Source: Falsiroseomonas frigidaquae (lineage in GTDB: Bacteria; Pseudomonadota; Alphaproteobacteria; Acetobacterales; Acetobacteraceae). From it: 64,000 bases of DNA. A model generated the notes under the pieces. It searched no databases. It had not been told where the DNA came from and was given only the letters and a program-made list of their open reading frames with translations. The stretch's first letter is position 1. Each line of letters starts with the position of its first letter. Both the position numbers and the translations under genes were made by a program. Location: positions 310,001 through 374,000 of the forward strand of contig NZ_JAAVTX010000004.1 in assembly GCF_012163145.1 (NCBI RefSeq), given 5' to 3'. This document shows positions 38,755-46,930 of the stretch, one piece after another.

Positions 38755-40416
38755 TCAATCCGCGCCGTAGAGCGTCTTCGCCTCCGCCGCGCTGACCAGC
38801 CCATCCGCCACGTCCCGCTCCACCAGCGCCCGGTCGCGCTGCTTCGGGTCGCCCATGCCGCCGCCGCCGGGCAGCTTCAGCAGCAGCCGCTTGCCCTTGG
38901 GGACCACCTGGAAGCCCTTGGTGCGAATGGTGCTGCCATCGGTATGGCCGGCCCAGCCTGCCGCGCCATCACCGCCGCCATCGCGACCCTTCGGCGCATT
39001 GGCCACGCGGTCGAAGATGGCGTTCACGGCGAATTCGGCCTCGCCCTTGGTGCCGATCTCCATGATCTTGCCGAAGCCGCCACGGGTGCGGCCGGCACCG
39101 GCCGAACCCTCCCGCAGCTGGTTCTGCCAGAAGATCACGGGCGCGACATTTTCCGTCGCCTCCACCGGCATGGTGCGCACGCCGGAGGGGAAGGCGGTGC
39201 CGTCCAGCCCGTCCTTGGTCGGGCGCGCGCCGGTGCCGCCCGAATTGAAGGTGATGATCTCGAAATCCGGCAGTTCCGCCGCCGCGCCGGAGACCTGCGC
39301 GCCGCCGCGCAATGGCGGATTCCACAGCGCCGAGGAGCCTTCCGCATTCACCCGATCCGGCACCGCATGGTGCAGGCAGCCCATCATCAGGTCCGGCAGC
39401 AACTGGCCCACGATGTGCCGCACGGAGACCGGGTAGGGCCGCGGCGCATTCAGGATGCAGCCTTCCGGGATCTCCATGCGGAAGGGCGCGAGCGAGGCCC
39501 AGTTGTTGGGGATCTCGGGCGCCACCACCACCTTGATGCCGAAGCAGGAATAGGCGCGGCAATAGGCGGCGGGCACGTTGATGCCGCGGCCGGACAGACC
39601 GGAAGTGCCGGCGTAGTCCACCACGATCTCATCCGCCTTCACCGTCATCGCCGCCTTCAGCGTGACCGGTGCCTCATAGCCATCGGAGGTGATCTGGCTG
39701 CTGTAGGTGCCCTGCGGCAGCTTCGCGATTTCCTCCAGCGTTGCCTTCAGCGAGCTGTCGAAGATGTAGGCGGCCAGCGGGTCCAGGCTGTCCATGCCGA
39801 ACTCGTCCAGCATCTCGACCAGCCGCTTGGCGCCGGCATCGTTGCAGGCACAGAGCGAGTAGATATCGCCCTCCAGCTCCACCGGCGTGCGGGTGCCGAC
39901 GCGGACGAAGTCGAACAGCGTCTCGTTCGGCTGGCCCTGGTCGAAGCATTTGACGATCGGGATATACAGCCCTTCCTCGAAGACGCTGCGGCCCTCGGGG
40001 CCCATGCCGAGGCCGCCGACATCGATGACATGCGCGGTATTGGCGAAGAGCCCCACGATCTTCCCGCGCTGGAAGGCGGGCGTCACGACGGTGAGGTCGT
40101 GCAGGTGGCCGGTGCCGAGCCAGGGGTCGTTGGTGATGTAGTGGTCGCCCGGCTTCATCGTCTCGGCCGGGAATTTCGCCAGGAAATGGCCGACCGATTC
40201 CATCATGGAGTTCACATGGCCCGGCGTGCCGGTGACGGCCTGCGCCAGCATGCGGCCCTGCAGGTCGAAGACGCCGGCAGACAGGTCACCGGCTTCCCGC
40301 ACCGTGGTGGAGAAGGCGGTGCGGATCATGATTTGCGCCTGTTCCTCCACCACCGCGATCAGGCGGTTCCACTGGATCTGCTGCTGGATTTTTGTCAATG
40401 CGTCAAAGGTGGTCAT
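38755..40416 (-). CDS. hyuB: Hydantoinase B / oxoprolinase subunit B
   Basis: Second subunit (553 aa) of an ATP-dependent hydantoinase/N-methylhydantoinase/5-oxoprolinase-type complex that opens cyclic amides. The start LTKIQQQIQWNRLIAVVEEQA, then FSTTVREAGDLSAGVFD, HYITNDPWLGTGHLHD and the C-terminal GGGGMGDPKQRD are typical of HyuB. Its partner HyuA is encoded 1 kb upstream rather than adjacent: a GIY-YIG nuclease gene has come between. The ATG 40414-40416 overlaps that gene's stop as ATGA. A GCGACA/TGTCGC hairpin lies at 38722-38745 after the stop. Confidence 0.94.
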   Translation of the reverse strand: MTTFDALTKIQQQIQWNRLIAVVEEQAQIMIRTAFSTTVREAGDLSAGVFDLQGRMLAQAVTGTPGHVNSMMESVGHFLAKFPAETMKPGDHYITNDPWLGTGHLHDLTVVTPAFQRGKIVGLFANTAHVIDVGGLGMGPEGRSVFEEGLYIPIVKCFDQGQPNETLFDFVRVGTRTPVELEGDIYSLCACNDAGAKRLVEMLDEFGMDSLDPLAAYIFDSSLKATLEEIAKLPQGTYSSQITSDGYEAPVTLKAAMTVKADEIVVDYAGTSGLSGRGINVPAAYCRAYSCFGIKVVVAPEIPNNWASLAPFRMEIPEGCILNAPRPYPVSVRHIVGQLLPDLMMGCLHHAVPDRVNAEGSSALWNPPLRGGAQVSGAAAELPDFEIITFNSGGTGARPTKDGLDGTAFPSGVRTMPVEATENVAPVIFWQNQLREGSAGAGRTRGGFGKIMEIGTKGEAEFAVNAIFDRVANAPKGRDGGGDGAAGWAGHTDGSTIRTKGFQVVPKGKRLLLKLPGGGGMGDPKQRDRALVERDVADGLVSAAEAKTLYGAD

Positions 40417-41414
40417 GTTGGAGTTGTTGTCCTCTGAAGCGCGTCAATCCACTTGTCATACCGTTGCCCGGTCGCTTCGTGTTCCCACACGTGCGGGCCG
40501 CGAAGCGACGTACAGGTCAAAACGGCGGCGGCGGCCGATGTACTTCCAACCGGGAAATCCGATCTAAGTCTTAAGAAGGCTGGCTTCTGGGGGTGCTGCT
40601 CAAGAAGATCTGATTGGTGTAATTTTGTCCGCAGCGCCAGAGATGATGTTGGGCAGGCACCGCCGACGGATTTCCTAAGCTCCGACCCAGCCAGCAGGAT
40701 GAAACCAGTACCATCGGCCATCATCTGAGCACTCACATCACGTGCGCCGATAAAACGAAAAATTTCTGCATTCAGGCTCTCGTGGCCTGGATTGATTGCG
40801 GCGAAGGGCTGCGCAGGATTTTCCCGTTTCGCGATTTCAGCCGACAATGTCGCATTATTTTTTTCGTTCAATTTTCCTTCCGCAATCATAGGGGATGGTC
40901 GGCCACGGAACACGCGAACCCCCAAAATTTCGGCAAGCAAGGCAACATCATCAGCAAAATCGCGCGCAAACGCCGCGTCACCATCGCTCAGCTTGCCCGC
41001 AGATGTTTGATCAGTGAATACCTTCGTCCTCCGCAACGACCGCGCGACCTCGACGAGCAAATGTTCTGCTCGTCGAGCATGAGCCTTGTTGAAGGTTTCA
41101 TCAGTTGTCGAGGCTACCGCGATCTGCTGCCAGTCGGCCTTTTCTAAGGCATGATGCTTGCCTCGAAACCGGTCGGACAGTGAGTCGCATTCGCCAATGT
41201 AGATGGCGTCGACACCGTCGCTCTCGCCCGACAAAAAATAGACCGCCGGACGGCTGCCTTCCTCGCGCTCCTTCATGGCCGCAAGACGGCTAAGTGGGCA
41301 GCTGGTGACGACGGTTGTGCTGCCAGCAATGGTTGCAGTTCTGAGGCCGTCCGGGTCTCCCTCGTGCAGGGTTAAGCGTATCAGCCGTGTGCGGGAACTA
41401 CGGATACTTGTCAC
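40413..41414 (-). CDS. GIY-YIG nuclease with DUF4357, inserted between hyuA and hyuB
   Basis: A 333-aa protein. Residues about 54-130 form a GIY-YIG endonuclease domain (AVYFLSG...AIYIGECDSLSDRFRGKHH, with the catalytic Arg and a Glu in RRAEHLLVEVARSL). About 240-330 match DUF4357 (TGFILLAGS..., SDFPVGSTSAAAAVLTC). Such pairs occur in predicted defence and restriction contexts. The start is GTG 41412-41414, inside the hyuA end, preceded by GGAG; its stop overlaps hyuB's ATG. Base composition is unlike its neighbours (31 of 60 bases G+C in the lines from 40801 and 40861, versus 42 of 60 in a hyuA line), which suggests recent acquisition. Nothing indicates a role in hydantoin metabolism. Confidence 0.8.
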   Translation of the reverse strand: MTSIRSSRTRLIRLTLHEGDPDGLRTATIAGSTTVVTSCPLSRLAAMKEREEGSRPAVYFLSGESDGVDAIYIGECDSLSDRFRGKHHALEKADWQQIAVASTTDETFNKAHARRAEHLLVEVARSLRRTKVFTDQTSAGKLSDGDAAFARDFADDVALLAEILGVRVFRGRPSPMIAEGKLNEKNNATLSAEIAKRENPAQPFAAINPGHESLNAEIFRFIGARDVSAQMMADGTGFILLAGSELRKSVGGACPTSSLALRTKLHQSDLLEQHPQKPAFLRLRSDFPVGSTSAAAAVLTCTSLRGPHVWEHEATGQRYDKWIDALQRTTTPT

Positions 41415-43479
41415 GGGACAGCTCCAGGTAACCTAGCCCATCGACCCGGCAGCGCCAGCCCGGCCCCACCAGCGTGCTGGTCTCGGCTTCCGCGACGATG
41501 CACGGCCCCGGCACGGTGGCGCCAGCCGGCATTTCGGCGCGGTCATAGACCTTCCATTCCGCCACCTGCCCCGTCGCCGTGTCGCGCACCTGCTGCACGC
41601 GGATCGGCGCGGGGGCCTGCGCATCGGCCACTGGTGCGACAGGCTCCACCGCATCCGCCACCGTCGCGACGGTCACGGCGAAGGACAGGATCTCCACGTC
41701 GCTGCCCGGCACCGGCCGGTCGTAGAAGCGGGTGTACTCGGCATCATAGGCCGCGCGGATTTCGGCGATGTCCTGCACGGTCAACGGCCGCGCAGGCAGC
41801 GCCACGTTGATCTCGTGGCCCTGGCCGACATAGCGCATGAAGGCGATGCGGTGTTCCTCGGTCGGCGCGCCGAAGGATCCCTCGGCCACAACGCGCGAAG
41901 CCTCCGCCGACATCTCGGCCAGCAGCGCATTCACCGCATTCACGTCGAAGGTCCGGAACCGCTGGTACAGCGACTTCACCACCTCGTACCCGACCGGCGC
42001 GCGCAGGAATCCGATGGCGGAGCCGACGCCGGCGCCGGACGGCACCAGCACGCGATCCACGCCGATCTTCTCCGCCACGCGATAGCCATGCACCGGCCCG
42101 CCACCACCAAAGGCGATGATGCCGCGGCCGCCATAGCCTTTTCCTGATTCGATGGCATGGACACGCGCCGCATTGGCCATGTTCTCATCCACCATCTCGA
42201 CCACGCCGAGCCCCGCCATTTCCGGCGCCAGCCCCAGCCCGCGGCCAACATGCGCATCCAGCGCATCCAGCGCCGGCTGCACATGCAGCTTCAGCGCGCC
42301 GCCGGCAAACAGGTCGGGCTCGTAGCGGCCGAGCGCCAGGTTCGCATCCGTCACCGCCGGCTTGTCGCCGCCGCGGCCATAGCAGGCCGGCCCCGGATCC
42401 GCACCGGCGCTTTCCGGCCCGACCTGGATGCGGCCCAGCGCATCGAGATGCGCGATCGAGCCACCACCGGCGCCGATCTCCACCATCTCGATCACCGGAA
42501 TCCGCAGCGGCAGCCCGGAGCCCTTCTTGAAGCGGCCGACGCGCGCCACCTCGAAGGTGCGGCTGGCCTGCGGCGCGAAATTGTCGATCAGGCACACCTT
42601 CGCCGTCGTGCCGCCCATGTCGAAGGACAGCACCTTGGACCAGCCGCGCTGCTTCGCGACATGCGCCGAGAAGATCGCGCCACCGGCCGGGCCGGATTCC
42701 ACCAGGCGGATCGGGAATCGCGCCGCGGTGTCCAGCGTGGTGAGGCCGCCGCCCGACAGCATCATGAACAGCGGGCAGGTGAAGCCGCCTTCCTTGAGGC
42801 CCGTCTCCAGCCGCCGCAGGTAGCTCGCCATCAGCGGCTGCACATAGGCATTGGCGGCGGTGGTGGAGAAGCGCTCCCACTCCCGCATCTCCGGCGAGAC
42901 TTCGGAAGACAACGAGATCGGCAGTTCCGGCCACATGTCATGCACGATCGCGGCGGCGCGCTTCTCATGCGCCGGATTCACGAAGGCATGCAGGAAGCCG
43001 ATCGCCAGGCTCTCGATGCCCTCGGCGCGCATGATTTCCACCTGCGCCCGCACTGCGGACTCATTCAGCGCCAGCAGGATGCGGCCCTCATTGTCCAGCC
43101 GCTCCGGCACGGTCAGGCGCCAGCGGCGCGGGATCAGCGGCTGCGGCAGGTCGATGTTGAGGTCGTACTGGTCATAGCGGGACTCATTGCCCAGCGCGAG
43201 CACGTCGCGAAAACCATCGGTGGTCAGCAGCGCGGTCTTGGCGCCCTTGCGCTCGATGATCGCATTGGTGGCGAGCGTGGTTCCGTGGATGACCAGCGCG
43301 ATGTCGGCGGGCGTCAGGCCAGCGCGGTCCATCACCAGCTTCACGCCGTTCAGCACGCCAAGTTCCGGCGCATGCGGCGTGGTCAGGACCTTGCCGGTCC
43401 AGCGCTCACCGTCACGCTCGACGGCCACATCAGTAAAGGTGCCGCCGATATCGACAGCTAGGCGCGCCTGGAAGCTCAA
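41398..43479 (-). CDS. hyuA: Hydantoinase A / oxoprolinase subunit A
   Basis: ATP-binding subunit (693 aa) of the hydantoinase/oxoprolinase complex, with an actin-like ATPase fold. Features: ARLAVDIGGTFTDVAVE at the start, IHGTTLATNAIIERKGAKTALLTTDGF, SSEVSPEMREWERFSTTAANAYV, FDMGGTTAKVCLI and GRGIIAFGGGGPVHGY. It begins with an unusual TTG (43477-43479), preceded by GGAG, seven to nine bases upstream. Two lower-GC genes flank it on either side within the same transcriptional direction. Normally hyuA and hyuB are adjacent. Confidence 0.94.
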   Translation of the reverse strand: MSFQARLAVDIGGTFTDVAVERDGERWTGKVLTTPHAPELGVLNGVKLVMDRAGLTPADIALVIHGTTLATNAIIERKGAKTALLTTDGFRDVLALGNESRYDQYDLNIDLPQPLIPRRWRLTVPERLDNEGRILLALNESAVRAQVEIMRAEGIESLAIGFLHAFVNPAHEKRAAAIVHDMWPELPISLSSEVSPEMREWERFSTTAANAYVQPLMASYLRRLETGLKEGGFTCPLFMMLSGGGLTTLDTAARFPIRLVESGPAGGAIFSAHVAKQRGWSKVLSFDMGGTTAKVCLIDNFAPQASRTFEVARVGRFKKGSGLPLRIPVIEMVEIGAGGGSIAHLDALGRIQVGPESAGADPGPACYGRGGDKPAVTDANLALGRYEPDLFAGGALKLHVQPALDALDAHVGRGLGLAPEMAGLGVVEMVDENMANAARVHAIESGKGYGGRGIIAFGGGGPVHGYRVAEKIGVDRVLVPSGAGVGSAIGFLRAPVGYEVVKSLYQRFRTFDVNAVNALLAEMSAEASRVVAEGSFGAPTEEHRIAFMRYVGQGHEINVALPARPLTVQDIAEIRAAYDAEYTRFYDRPVPGSDVEILSFAVTVATVADAVEPVAPVADAQAPAPIRVQQVRDTATGQVAEWKVYDRAEMPAGATVPGPCIVAEAETSTLVGPGWRCRVDGLGYLELSRDKYP

Positions 43480-43492
43480 TTATTTCTCCATC

Positions 43493-44803
43493 TCAATCTG
43501 GTTTAAAAAGACGAAGGAGGCCTGCTACCCAGCCGAAGGTTCCTGGAAGCTCGTTTGCAAGCTCACCAAGCTGATCTTGCTGCCTCTCGATAAACGCTTG
43601 CGCTTCGCCATAAAGTTTTTCGCTACGCAGCCCGTCGCTTACTTCGCGCTTAATTGCGTCCTTCACCCCTTCCTTGGCAGCATCCAAAGCAAAGCTACCC
43701 ACGGCGGCGAGTGAACCACGAGAAACCGCTGCCGCCGTAGCCTGAACCGCTGCACCTCCCGAAGCTAGTTCTGCCTGGACTTCCTGCGCAAGAAGGCGCG
43801 ATGGCTCATCGAAAACATTCGGTGAATCTTCAACAGCCTTCACGGTCGGCAAAAAAAGACCTAAATTTCCAATCTCAAGTCTGGCGATTTTCTCGTATTG
43901 CTCAGCAACCGCCAGAACCTCAGCCGAAGCGCCAATCAGCATACTATGTCTAATTAAAAATTGATCAACTAGCTCAACAACATCCCGATCAACAAATTCA
44001 AGTAGCTGCCCCGACTTCTGTCTGCGAGCAATATAGGACTGGATATCGCCACCAAACATAAAAATTCTTAAGGGTGACGGGGAACTCTTGTTGATTTCTT
44101 TGCGATATTTTCGGATGGCGTCATAAAGTCTGGGATGTGAATTCGCCAGCGACGACTCGACATAACTTAGTTCTCCCAGGAGCTCCTTCAGCAGCCCAAC
44201 CAGTTCATCACTGGCGTCCGGAAGACCCTGGGCGGTGATGCCGAACCGACCGTTATTGACTTTGAATCTAACCCCCTCGGATGCAGCCAGACGAATCTGC
44301 TCTGGCACGTCGGGCGCAGGGACGCTTGCAGCTACTGCCTGCCGAAGTAGGTCTCGCACGACATCACGATATGCCTCGATCACCGCCTCAGCCGCTATCG
44401 CCGTTACGTTCGGCGCATCTCCTCGATAACCCGATAACAATGGCGACATCTGAAAATTTCGCGACATTATCGCGCTTAGCTGGAATCGAATCTGAGGTTC
44501 AAGAAATGCAGAATTTCCGAATCCAATCAATTTTTTAGCAAGCAGCATTTCGTGCGCTTTAAGATTTTCAATTGTGAAGGCCTCATTCAGCGTGTGCCTA
44601 AGGTACTCCGAGACCTCGTTGATCAAGCGTGAGCGAACAAGCTGCCCCCGATATTCTTGATCCGCAATCTTTCGCAGAATGCCGCGCTCGTACTTAAAGA
44701 ACGAGTTCGGATTTCTTTCGAGTAATGCGGCGGCGGACCTTTGGACGGCCGTCGACGCGAGCGGTCTGAACGAAGAAAGGGTCTGAGCCAACAGTTGGTT
44801 CAT
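43493..44803 (-). CDS. Unrecognised low-GC protein inserted between hyuC and hyuA
   Basis: A 436-aa protein (444 if the GTG at 44825-44827 is used; ATG 44801-44803, with AAGAAGA upstream, is preferred). It is mostly alpha-helical and charged, with no signal peptide. A C-terminal part (about 335-430) is Ala/Gly-rich then amphipathic (SRGSLAAVGSFALDAAKEGVKDAIKREV) and could contact membrane. A central segment LRIFMFGGDIQSYIARRQKSG is notable. I do not recognise a family. G+C is only 24, 21 and 27 of 60 bases in the lines from 44041, 44521 and 43861, the lowest in the window, so it is almost certainly foreign. It fits between hyuC (28 bases upstream) and hyuA (13 bases downstream) without disrupting either. 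Confidence 0.75.
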   Translation of the reverse strand: MNQLLAQTLSSFRPLASTAVQRSAAALLERNPNSFFKYERGILRKIADQEYRGQLVRSRLINEVSEYLRHTLNEAFTIENLKAHEMLLAKKLIGFGNSAFLEPQIRFQLSAIMSRNFQMSPLLSGYRGDAPNVTAIAAEAVIEAYRDVVRDLLRQAVAASVPAPDVPEQIRLAASEGVRFKVNNGRFGITAQGLPDASDELVGLLKELLGELSYVESSLANSHPRLYDAIRKYRKEINKSSPSPLRIFMFGGDIQSYIARRQKSGQLLEFVDRDVVELVDQFLIRHSMLIGASAEVLAVAEQYEKIARLEIGNLGLFLPTVKAVEDSPNVFDEPSRLLAQEVQAELASGGAAVQATAAAVSRGSLAAVGSFALDAAKEGVKDAIKREVSDGLRSEKLYGEAQAFIERQQDQLGELANELPGTFGWVAGLLRLFKPD

Positions 44804-44831
44804 TAATAAATCTTCTTTCGCGCTCACACTG

Positions 44832-46094
44832 CTAACGCATCTGTATCGCCCAACGTGTCACCACGGCGCACGCATCCGCAAAATCGTCCATCCGCATCGC
44901 TTCCTTCGGATTGTGGCTGCCATTCTGGTTGCGGACGAAGATCATCCCGCTCGGGATGCCCGCCATAGCAAAGGCCGCCGCATCATGGCCGGCGCCGCTC
45001 GCCATCGCCAGATGCCTGATGCCCAGCGCATCGGCCGCGCGCGCCAGGCCATCGCGTATCGCCTCATCCATCGGCGCCGCGCGGCTGGTGGTCTCGGCGC
45101 CGAGTTCGAACCGCACGCCGCGGCGCGCCTCGATCTCCGGCACCGCCTCGTACAGTGTTTCCATCAACAGGTCGCAGCTGCGCGGGTTCACGCTGCGGAC
45201 GTCGAGCTGGAAACGCGCCTCGCCGGCGATCTTGGTGAAGCCGGCCTCTTCCGTCGTGCCCATGACGCAGAAGGTGACGACCATCGCATGGCCGCGCGCC
45301 TCCAGCTCCACCCAGCGGTCATCGACGCGATGCGCCAGCTCCGCCAGCGCGATCGCGGCATCACGGCGATACTTGCGGGGCGTGGCGCCCGAATGATTGT
45401 ACTCGCCCAGCACGCGCGCCGCGCGCAGCCGGCGCGTGCCGGGGATTCCGGTGACGATGCCGACCGGCACGCCCTGCCCTTCCAGCACCGGCCCCTGCTC
45501 GATATGCAGTTCGAGGAAAGCCGCGGTGTCATCAGGCGAGAATGTCTTGCCGCCGCGCTCGACGAAGCCGGGATCGAAACCCTCGTCGCGCATATGGTCG
45601 GCCAGCGAGCGGCCGTTATCCTGCCGCTTCACGGCCAGTTCTTCCGGCTTCAGCAGGCCGAGCGCGCCGCGCGAGCCGGGGTAGGAGATCGGGAACCAGC
45701 TTCCCGCCTCCTCCGCCCGCACCGCCACCACCGTCACGTCCCGCCCCGGCACGAAGCCGGCGCGCTTCATGCCGGCCACGGCGGCCAGGCCGCACAGCAC
45801 GCCGGCGGCGCCGTCGAAATTGCCGCCCTCCGCCACGCTGTCCAGATGGCTGCCGAGCAGCACGCGCTTCGCCGCACGGTCGCTGCCCGGCAGCGTCATC
45901 AGCAGGTTGCCGACGGGGTCGGTGCGGCATTCCAGCCCGATCCCCTCCGCCGCCGCGCGCACCTGCTCATGCGCGCGGCGTTCGCCCGCGCCATAGGCAT
46001 CGCGCGTGATGCCGACGCCATCGAAGCTGGCGTCGCGCAACTCATCGAACAGCCGCGTGGCGAGTTCGATGTCGGGGGAGAGGTTCGGGATCAC
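44832..46094 (-). CDS. M20 family Zn-dependent amidohydrolase (N-carbamoyl-L-amino acid hydrolase / allantoate amidohydrolase type)
   Basis: Binuclear metal amidase (420 aa). The catalytic domain has LLGSHLDSVAEGGNFDGAAGVL (metal His and Asp), the acidic RAEEAGSW, ELHIEQGPVLE and the closing SGAGHDAAAFA and GSHNPKEAM. A dimerisation domain occupies about 210-330. In a hydantoin pathway this enzyme would hydrolyse the N-carbamoyl amino acid made by HyuAB, which fits its position upstream of hyuA; allantoate is an alternative substrate. It starts at GTG 46092-46094, with AAGGA upstream, 44 bases after the SDR gene. Confidence 0.9.
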   Translation of the reverse strand: MIPNLSPDIELATRLFDELRDASFDGVGITRDAYGAGERRAHEQVRAAAEGIGLECRTDPVGNLLMTLPGSDRAAKRVLLGSHLDSVAEGGNFDGAAGVLCGLAAVAGMKRAGFVPGRDVTVVAVRAEEAGSWFPISYPGSRGALGLLKPEELAVKRQDNGRSLADHMRDEGFDPGFVERGGKTFSPDDTAAFLELHIEQGPVLEGQGVPVGIVTGIPGTRRLRAARVLGEYNHSGATPRKYRRDAAIALAELAHRVDDRWVELEARGHAMVVTFCVMGTTEEAGFTKIAGEARFQLDVRSVNPRSCDLLMETLYEAVPEIEARRGVRFELGAETTSRAAPMDEAIRDGLARAADALGIRHLAMASGAGHDAAAFAMAGIPSGMIFVRNQNGSHNPKEAMRMDDFADACAVVTRWAIQMR

Positions 46095-46138: not shown

Positions 46139-46930
46139 TCACAGCATGCTCCGAACGCGGCCGCCATCGACGCGGATCATGCTGCCGGTGATGTAGCCGC
46201 CGCGCTCGCTGGCGAGGAAGGCGCCCATCGGGCCGAATTCCTCCGGCAGGCCGATGCGCCCGGCCGGAATCTCCTGGCCAACCTTCTTCAGGTCCTCCTC
46301 CAGCGAAACCCCGGTCTTCTCGGCGCGCGCCTTGGCCATCTGCATGATGCGGTCGGTCATGATGCTGCCGGGCGCGATGACGTTCATCGTCACGCCATCC
46401 TTGGCCACCTCGCCCGAATAGGTCTTCAGCCAGCCCCAGATCGCCGAGCGCAGCGTGTTGGACAGCGCCAGGTTCGGAATCGGGTGCTGCATGCCGGTGC
46501 TGCCCACCACCAACACCCGGCCCCAGCCACGCTCGCGCATCGCCGGCATCAGCCGGTTGGCGATGCGGATCGGCGAGGCGACCATCTGCTCGAACCAGGT
46601 GTGCAGCGAGGCATCCGTGATCTCGGAGGCGACGCAGGGCGGCGGGCCGCCATGGTTCAGCACCAGGATATCGACGCCGCCCATCAGGCGCACCGCCTCA
46701 TCGGCCAGCTTGTCCATGTCCGCGCCATTGGCGACATTCGCCGGCACGCCGAAGGCATCGGCGGCGCCGGCGGCCTTCAGCTCGCCCGCCACCACATCCA
46801 GCTTCGCCTGTTCGCGCCCGCTCACCACCACGGTCGCACCTTCGGCCGCCAGGCTGTCCGCGATCGAGCGGCCGAGGCCCTTGGAGGCGCCCATCACCAA
46901 AGCCCGCTTGCCCTTGAGTCCGAGATCCAT
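46139..46930 (-). CDS. SDR family oxidoreductase lacking the catalytic Tyr/Lys
   Basis: Rossmann-fold short-chain dehydrogenase (263 aa) with an intact cofactor site: LVMGASKGLGRSIA near 11-24 and LVLNHGGPP near 89-97 (an altered NNAG). The active-site block is degenerate: Ser144 is present (VVGSTGMQHP), but the positions of the catalytic Tyr and Lys, 157 and 161, read S157 and R161 in NLALSNTLRSA. A subfamily of SDRs of this kind is known and not all are inactive. C-terminal EFGPMGAFLASERGGYITGSMIRVDGG is normal. It is the first gene of the operon that continues into hyuC. Confidence 0.9.
   Translation of the reverse strand: MDLGLKGKRALVMGASKGLGRSIADSLAAEGATVVVSGREQAKLDVVAGELKAAGAADAFGVPANVANGADMDKLADEAVRLMGGVDILVLNHGGPPPCVASEITDASLHTWFEQMVASPIRIANRLMPAMRERGWGRVLVVGSTGMQHPIPNLALSNTLRSAIWGWLKTYSGEVAKDGVTMNVIAPGSIMTDRIMQMAKARAEKTGVSLEEDLKKVGQEIPAGRIGLPEEFGPMGAFLASERGGYITGSMIRVDGGRVRSML

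What the first reader, a model, noticed from the sequence alone, without database searches (positions are those of the whole stretch)
43493..44803. Foreign low-GC gene slotted between hyuC and hyuA
Lines of this gene contain only 21-27 G+C per 60 bases while hyuA beside it has about 42. The 436-aa product belongs to no family I recognise. It fits the gap between two metabolic genes without breaking either, with no transposase or terminal repeat seen. It may be a passenger (defence, toxin-like or regulatory) gene using an existing operon for expression.
Basis: partly seen in the sequence, partly recalled or inferred. Interest (0 to 1): 0.72.

Follow-up and report, generated by a model that had tools for sequence, protein, structure and literature searches.

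The report
Orphan passenger gene inside hydantoinase operon
A foreign gene of unknown fold sits cleanly between two enzyme genes of one operon, a second foreign gene that is probably a nuclease sits at the next junction, and related bacteria carry other genes at these same junctions, so the operon seems to serve as a parking place for single genes.

Summary
ORF X (43493-44803, minus strand, 436 aa) has GC3 0.50 against 0.86-0.92 in ten other genes of the window. It fills the hyuC/hyuA junction, which is closed in 14 of 15 same-genus relatives. X and Y hold the only sub-60% GC stretches of the window. Six of 16 same-genus genomes carry a passenger at one or both junctions. Y-family genes sit at hyuA/hyuB in five genomes of four genera; G000 and G002 share 39% in Y but 96% in HyuA, so arrivals were separate. 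X matches no curated family. One probable distant relative was found (G494, 24% over 257 aa, AT-rich, near toxin-antitoxin pieces).
Against hyu being special: the glcD/glcE junction is filled as often (5 of 29; 5 of 16 in the genus, as for hyuA/hyuB), though by GC-matched genes shared among species. Best reading: a horizontally acquired accessory gene, perhaps conflict/defence-type, carried by the operon. No structure was obtained.

The parts
43493..44803 (-). ORF X, 436 aa, orphan passenger between hyuC and hyuA
   Evidence: no family match above cut-off; distant relative
44804..44827 (-). possible upstream extension of X (GTG at 44827, 4 nt after the hyuC stop, 24 nt before the ATG)
43480..43492 (-). 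13-nt gap between X stop and hyuA TTG start; contains a GGAG that could serve as ribosome site (sequence reading)
44832..46094 (-). hyuC, M20-family hydantoinase/carbamoylase-type amidase
41398..43479 (-). hyuA, Hydantoinase_A, TTG start
40413..41414 (-). ORF Y, 333 aa, GIY-YIG/DUF4357-type, PADLOC PDC-S14; second low-GC passenger, overlaps hyuA by 17 nt and the hyuB start by 4 nt (ATGA)
38755..40416 (-). hyuB, Hydantoinase_B
46139..46930 (-). short-chain dehydrogenase, first gene of the run that is conserved with hyuC, hyuA and hyuB in the genus

Best explanation
X is a horizontally acquired single gene that entered the hyuC/hyuA junction of an established hydantoinase operon and is carried as an operon passenger. 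Shown: foreign composition, coding frame, clean boundaries, operon orientation, no copy found in 15 same-genus genomes, a second foreign gene (Y) at the next junction, and turnover of different genes at both junctions in relatives. Inferred: (1) entry needs no recombinase of its own; a cassette arrives by exchange through hyu flanks or by short illegitimate joining, and is kept where it packs tightly and leaves its neighbours translated; (2) X is made from the operon promoter by read-through; (3) X is an accessory conflict-type protein (anti-phage, anti-plasmid or toxin-like), because both known members of its family are AT-rich stand-alone genes in the company of a candidate defence gene or toxin-antitoxin pieces. 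I hold the passenger part at about 0.9, flank exchange at about 0.4 and the conflict-type function at about 0.4.
For: GC3; X and Y are the only stretches under 60% GC in 64 kb. Junction states in 16 same-genus genomes: hyuA/hyuB filled in 5, hyuC/hyuA in 2; all contents differ, the nearest being two Ys at 39%. Among five close species (HyuA 95-100%) hyuA/hyuB holds Y, a 172-aa gene without Pfam or PADLOC match, a 39%-identical Y, and nothing twice. In 16 of 17 filled hyuA/hyuB junctions a passenger frame runs with the operon; the 17th (L067) shows no such gene. Several passengers start on the hyuA stop and end on the hyuB start. Flanking genes keep mostly 85-98% identity to the four closest relatives until the last few dozen bases. 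Relative of X: E 6.2e-4 in its genome, BLASTP E 1e-9 for the pair alone, 21.0 bits against 6.3 for the best of 2000 shuffles; its GC is 0.48 in a 0.62 region and it lies near BrnA and a partial HicA. Y: PDC-S14 E 1.9e-55.
Against: No functional motif in X and no structure. Neither X nor its relative matches a PADLOC model. The relative is one hit: its E-value means 0.09 expected in the 143 genomes of that search and about 0.4 over the 675 (overlapping) genomes. Passengers are not all conflict-like: glycosyltransferase, ABM-like, DUF3574 and DUF3616 proteins also occur. In the same genus the glcD/glcE junction is filled in 5 of 16, exactly as hyuA/hyuB, so hyu may be ordinary. No transcript data.
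Confidence: 0.6

Rival explanations
1. There is nothing special about the hyu operon: in this bacterial group single genes often land in operon junctions, and X is one ordinary example.
For: glcD/glcE-type junction filled in 5 of 29 measurable loci (one of 30 loci could not be measured) against 17 of 108 for hyuA/hyuB, p = 0.78; all five are in the window's genus, 5 of 16 there, the same as hyuA/hyuB.
Against: The glc fillings are GC-matched and shared: EthD in G007, G009 and G011 (85% identical) and a PhyH-like gene in G001 and G008 (69%), so about two events. The seven hyu fillings of the genus all differ and five have GC 0.51-0.60. A coxM/coxL-type junction, sampled mostly in other genera, is filled in 0 of 30, p = 0.023 unadjusted. 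One Y family returns to one hyu junction in five genomes.
Confidence: 0.4
2. Y is a selfish homing-endonuclease-like gene aimed at the hyuA/hyuB junction; X came in as a by-product of repair at the neighbouring junction.
For: GIY-YIG-type gene, free-standing, at the same junction in five genomes, with separate arrivals.
Against: The copies compared are only 37-46% identical, not the near-identical copies that recent homing gives; no cut site known; two copies travel with VapBC; one clade member (G486) is elsewhere and one (G074) is behind hyuC without hyuA; the family matches PDC-S14.
Confidence: 0.1
3. X is a new functional part of hydantoin/lactam metabolism or its regulator.
For: Operon orientation and tight packing.
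Against: Not found in the 15 same-genus hyu operons or by any search of the other loci; no match to metabolic or regulatory families; foreign composition.
Confidence: 0.06
4. X is a decaying or spurious frame, or an assembly artefact.
For: Codon use unlike the host; only one distant relative known.
Against: 436 open codons at 51% GC, codon-position GC bias 0.63/0.41/0.50, position inside a 749-kb contig, relative of similar length.
Confidence: 0.03

Closest known systems
Core defense hotspots of Pseudomonas aeruginosa (cDHS1 and cDHS2; PMC10250203, passages seen)
   Same: Fixed address between conserved genes, diverse contents, many genes of unknown function, cDHS1 not obviously tied to one mobile element.
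   Different: cDHS1 spans 1-224 kb (median 26 kb) between core genes; here the site is inside a tightly packed metabolic operon and holds one to three genes, and the contents are not shown to be defence.
Mosaic operons formed by horizontal transfer (term seen only in a search listing; concept recalled)
   Same: A foreign gene becomes part of a pre-existing operon.
   Different: Here the same junctions of one operon are entered repeatedly by different genes, several of them seen in one species only.
PADLOC PDC-S14, GIY-YIG/DUF4357-type single-gene defence candidate (for Y)
   Same: Near full-length profile match, E 1.9e-55.
   Different: A candidate only; I read of no test of its activity and made none.
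Free-standing GIY-YIG homing endonucleases of phages (recalled)
   Same: Intergenic nuclease-type gene that returns to one site (Y).
   Different: High divergence between copies, no known target, company with VapBC.

Membership tests
Any curated family for X (Pfam, NCBIfam, PADLOC, PHROGs) | profile match above cut-off | tested here: not met
   best were PF08376 at E 0.19 (12.5 of 24.9 bits) and NF046114 (17.9 of 200 bits)
X family (X plus the G494 protein) | sequence similarity above shuffled controls | tested here: met
   covers residues 178-434 of X; the N-terminal part has no local match
PDC-S14 (Y) | near full-length profile match | tested here: met
   residues 8-325 of 333; three relatives; the split Y of G535 was not tested with PADLOC
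PDC-S14 (Y) | anti-phage activity | not testable with these tools
   no experiment
DUF4357 (Pfam PF14267, Y) | score above gathering cut-off | tested here: not met
   19.9 of 38.4 bits for Y; relatives 36.7, 32.4, 40.6 and 35.1, so one of four passes
GIY-YIG nuclease (Y) | GIY and YIG tyrosines, active-site Arg and Glu (motif recalled) | tested here: inconclusive
   Y59, Y72, G74, R82, E117 invariant in five sequences, but no Pfam GIY-YIG match; distant plasmid homologues (24-29%) are annotated as GIY-YIG
Core defence hotspot | conserved flanks with diverse contents across genomes | tested here: met
Core defence hotspot | contents mainly defence systems, above background | tested here: inconclusive
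   5 of 17 hyuA/hyuB fillings are Y-type, 2 of these with VapBC; glcD/glcE is filled as often by other genes
Transposon, integron or integrative element | recombinase gene, terminal repeats or attachment duplication | tested here: not met
   no recombinase frame recognised between hyuC and hyuB; repeats under 12 nt were not looked for
Homing endonuclease (Y) | cuts the unoccupied allele | not testable with these tools
   no experiment

The most novel reading that the evidence does not exclude
The hyuC/hyuA and hyuA/hyuB junctions of Acetobacteraceae are a fixed exchange address for single-gene conflict cassettes that need no integrase: cassettes swap by recombination in the hyu flanks, are expressed by translational coupling, and include X as founder of a new two-member defence or toxin family.
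Probability: 0.2. Interest if true: 0.75.

Novelty: new variant of a known kind. Interest (0 to 1): 0.5.

Why it matters
If the address is real, scanning the junctions of tightly packed metabolic operons becomes a way to find single-gene defence or toxin candidates that island-based searches can miss. It also offers a natural test of how lone genes enter operons without a recombinase of their own.

Tried and rejected
Hyu as a unique hotspot: dropped. My second control (glcD/glcE) turned out to be filled too. One search printed a Fisher line with a hard-coded 0 of 16 for glcD/glcE in the genus, which is wrong (it is 5 of 16); replace it. The glcD-type hits are all below the TIGR00387 cut-off, so I call them glcD-type. 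A third control from flanking gene pairs was thin and partly picked antisense frames; I do not use it. All p values are unadjusted and treat related loci as independent.

Vertical descent of Y: rejected for G000 and G002 (Y 39%, HyuA 96%; the tree pairs G000 with G050 at 96/87). The tree gives six hyu-associated Ys plus G486 as one 100/100 clade; the six by themselves have weak support (69/34). Other Y-type genes (35 of 299 family genomes; 28 of 249 in the phylum; both counts include the window's genome) lie outside that clade as far as placed in the tree; I looked at the neighbours of none but G486 and G074.

Import tract around the junctions: none seen against six relatives. Exchange between close relatives would leave no mark, so this is not decisive.

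X homologues: none outside the window's genome in 147 relatives and 385 class genomes at E 1e-3, nor in plasmids, phages, viral or genome contigs; one below 1e-3 in 143 order genomes. Four weaker hits did not match the two-sequence profile at E 0.1 (frames of 100 aa or more). Viral scans with the two-sequence alignment, with the G494 protein and with the Y alignment found nothing. Contig scans use short peptide patterns and find close relatives only.

Six hyuC/hyuA gaps over 200 bp (L131, L149, L152, L162, L168, L174) lie in operons with more distant hyuC (46-71%); I recognised no clear passenger and do not count them as such.

Structure: 25 calls of structure prediction (33, 40, 47, 52, 59, 62, 68, 72, 77, 80, 82, 84, 87, 92, 95, 97, 102, 106, 110, 113 with X; 121, 127, 129, 132, 134 with alignment A2) answered that the machine was busy; no model, so no fold search.

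Literature: searches. Abstract and outline of PMC2259305 seen; passages of PMC4619093 and PMC10250203; all else seen as listings. One operon paper was not held. These searches showed no report of passengers at hyu junctions, which is weak evidence of absence.

Full report
1. The observation. On the minus strand the gene order is short-chain dehydrogenase, hyuC, X, hyuA, Y, hyuB. X is a real-looking coding frame: 436 open codons at 51% GC with a codon-position pattern, but GC3 is 0.50 against 0.86-0.92 in ten other genes of the window (the CAI-like score of the same call, 0.21 against 0.71-0.84, uses those ten as reference). X and Y contain the only 500-base windows below 60% GC in the 64 kb. 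No recombinase or end repeat marks them.

2. The empty site. HyuA orthologues (83-97% identical) occur in 15 of 15 same-genus genomes searched. I measured junctions in 111 loci with hyuA: 30 of the 31 non-window loci (L071 has no hyuA), the 80, and the window. The 80 were taken roughly by match score from the 164 of 299 family genomes with a strong hit, some contig-end hits left out. hyuA/hyuB could be measured in 108 and hyuC/hyuA in 68. The usual state is an overlap or a gap of at most 60 bp (90 of 108; 55 of 68).

3. Passengers. 17 of 108 hyuA/hyuB gaps exceed 200 bp. Contents: Y family in five (window, G002, G050, G552, G535); in G050 and G535 it follows VapB and VapC (VapB by Pfam in both, PIN by Pfam in G535, 72% identical in G050); glycosyltransferase-type in two (L053 just at or below Pfam cut-offs, L099 similar); DUF3574 in three (L100 by Pfam, L111 and L122 48-52% identical); an ABM-like protein in three (L109 below the Pfam cut-off, L056 and L139 75% identical); DUF3616 in one (L129); two without Pfam or PADLOC match (L042, L123); and one with no gene (L067). 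At hyuC/hyuA the clean passengers are X and a 221-aa gene in G014 (L046; seen only in G014 of 60 genomes). In the genus 6 of 16 genomes hold at least one passenger, seven in all; no two are the same, the nearest being the Ys of G000 and G002.

4. Separate arrivals. Identity among five Y proteins (four at hyuA/hyuB plus that of G074; the split one of G535 left out) is 37-46% whatever the host distance; G000 and G002 are 39% in Y but 96% in HyuA. In a tree of 31 Y-type proteins the six hyu-associated ones and G486 form a 100/100 clade, with G000 next to G050 rather than its close relative G002. Of the six, G074 lies behind hyuC with hyuA elsewhere; G486 lies outside the operon. The first search with the window's Y alone already gave G074, G050 and G002 as its three best foreign hits, so their place was not selected for; G552 and G535 were first seen by scanning junctions. 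Its strict patterns find only close kin.

5. Is hyu special? The controls disagree. A coxM/coxL-type junction is filled in 0 of 30 loci (p = 0.023), but only one of these loci, the window's own, is from the genus. The glcD/glcE-type junction is filled in 5 of 29 (p = 0.78) and, within the genus, in 5 of 16, the same as hyuA/hyuB. The glc fillings are GC-matched (0.72-0.76) and shared among species, about two events; the hyu fillings of the genus all differ and five of seven are AT-rich. I therefore claim recurrent occupation of hyu junctions and the repeated return of the Y family, but not that hyu is filled more often than other operons.

6. What X is. No curated family or solved structure matches at a meaningful level. 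The one relative found is a 486-aa protein of G494 (same bacterial family), aligned over residues 178-434 of X at 24% identity, 21.0 bits against a best of 6.3 in 2000 shuffles. It is AT-rich too (0.48 in a 0.62 region) and stands near a BrnA antitoxin, a HicA match below cut-off and a DUF6338 protein. X has no strong membrane segment (highest 19-residue hydropathy 1.45). This company makes a conflict role the best guess, not a finding.

7. Mechanism. Most likely a lone gene arrives with short flanks, joins at the ends of the neighbouring genes (the last codons of hyuC and hyuA differ from relatives), and survives because tight packing keeps the operon genes translated. Exchange through homologous hyu flanks would explain why Y returns to one place; the data neither show nor exclude it. 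X and Y then ride the hyu transcript (inferred).

8. Verdict. Added here: the second passenger, turnover at both junctions, separate arrivals of one nuclease-like family at one junction, a probable distant relative of X, and a control showing that such fillings also occur in another operon.

Noticed in passing
   Followed up: yes
L147:6134-7418 and L072:8411-10015: VapB-VapC-Y three-gene cassette at hyuA/hyuB in two different genera; the Y of L147 is split by a frame break.
   Followed up: partly
L280, L290 (PhyH-like by reading) and L282, L291, L299 (EthD): The glcD/glcE-type junction also holds extra genes, GC-matched and shared by several species of the genus.
   Followed up: partly
L123:6013-6945: 310-aa low-GC (0.50) gene at hyuA/hyuB of G484, no Pfam or PADLOC match.
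   Followed up: partly
L046:7466-8131: 221-aa low-GC gene at hyuC/hyuA of G014 that overlaps both neighbours; hydrophobic N-terminal stretch by reading.
   Followed up: partly
L183:1280-2308: Nearest non-hyu relative of Y (G486), downstream of what reads like the end of a UvrD-type helicase gene.
   Followed up: partly
L071 (G074, Roseomonas acroporae): Y lies behind hyuC although hyuA and hyuB are on another contig, as if the junction gene stayed when the operon was split.
   Followed up: no
hyuA matches of G018, G516, G579, G687 and others: The search reports one TGA inside the HyuA match in several genomes; it may be the terminal stop or a true internal stop.
   Followed up: no
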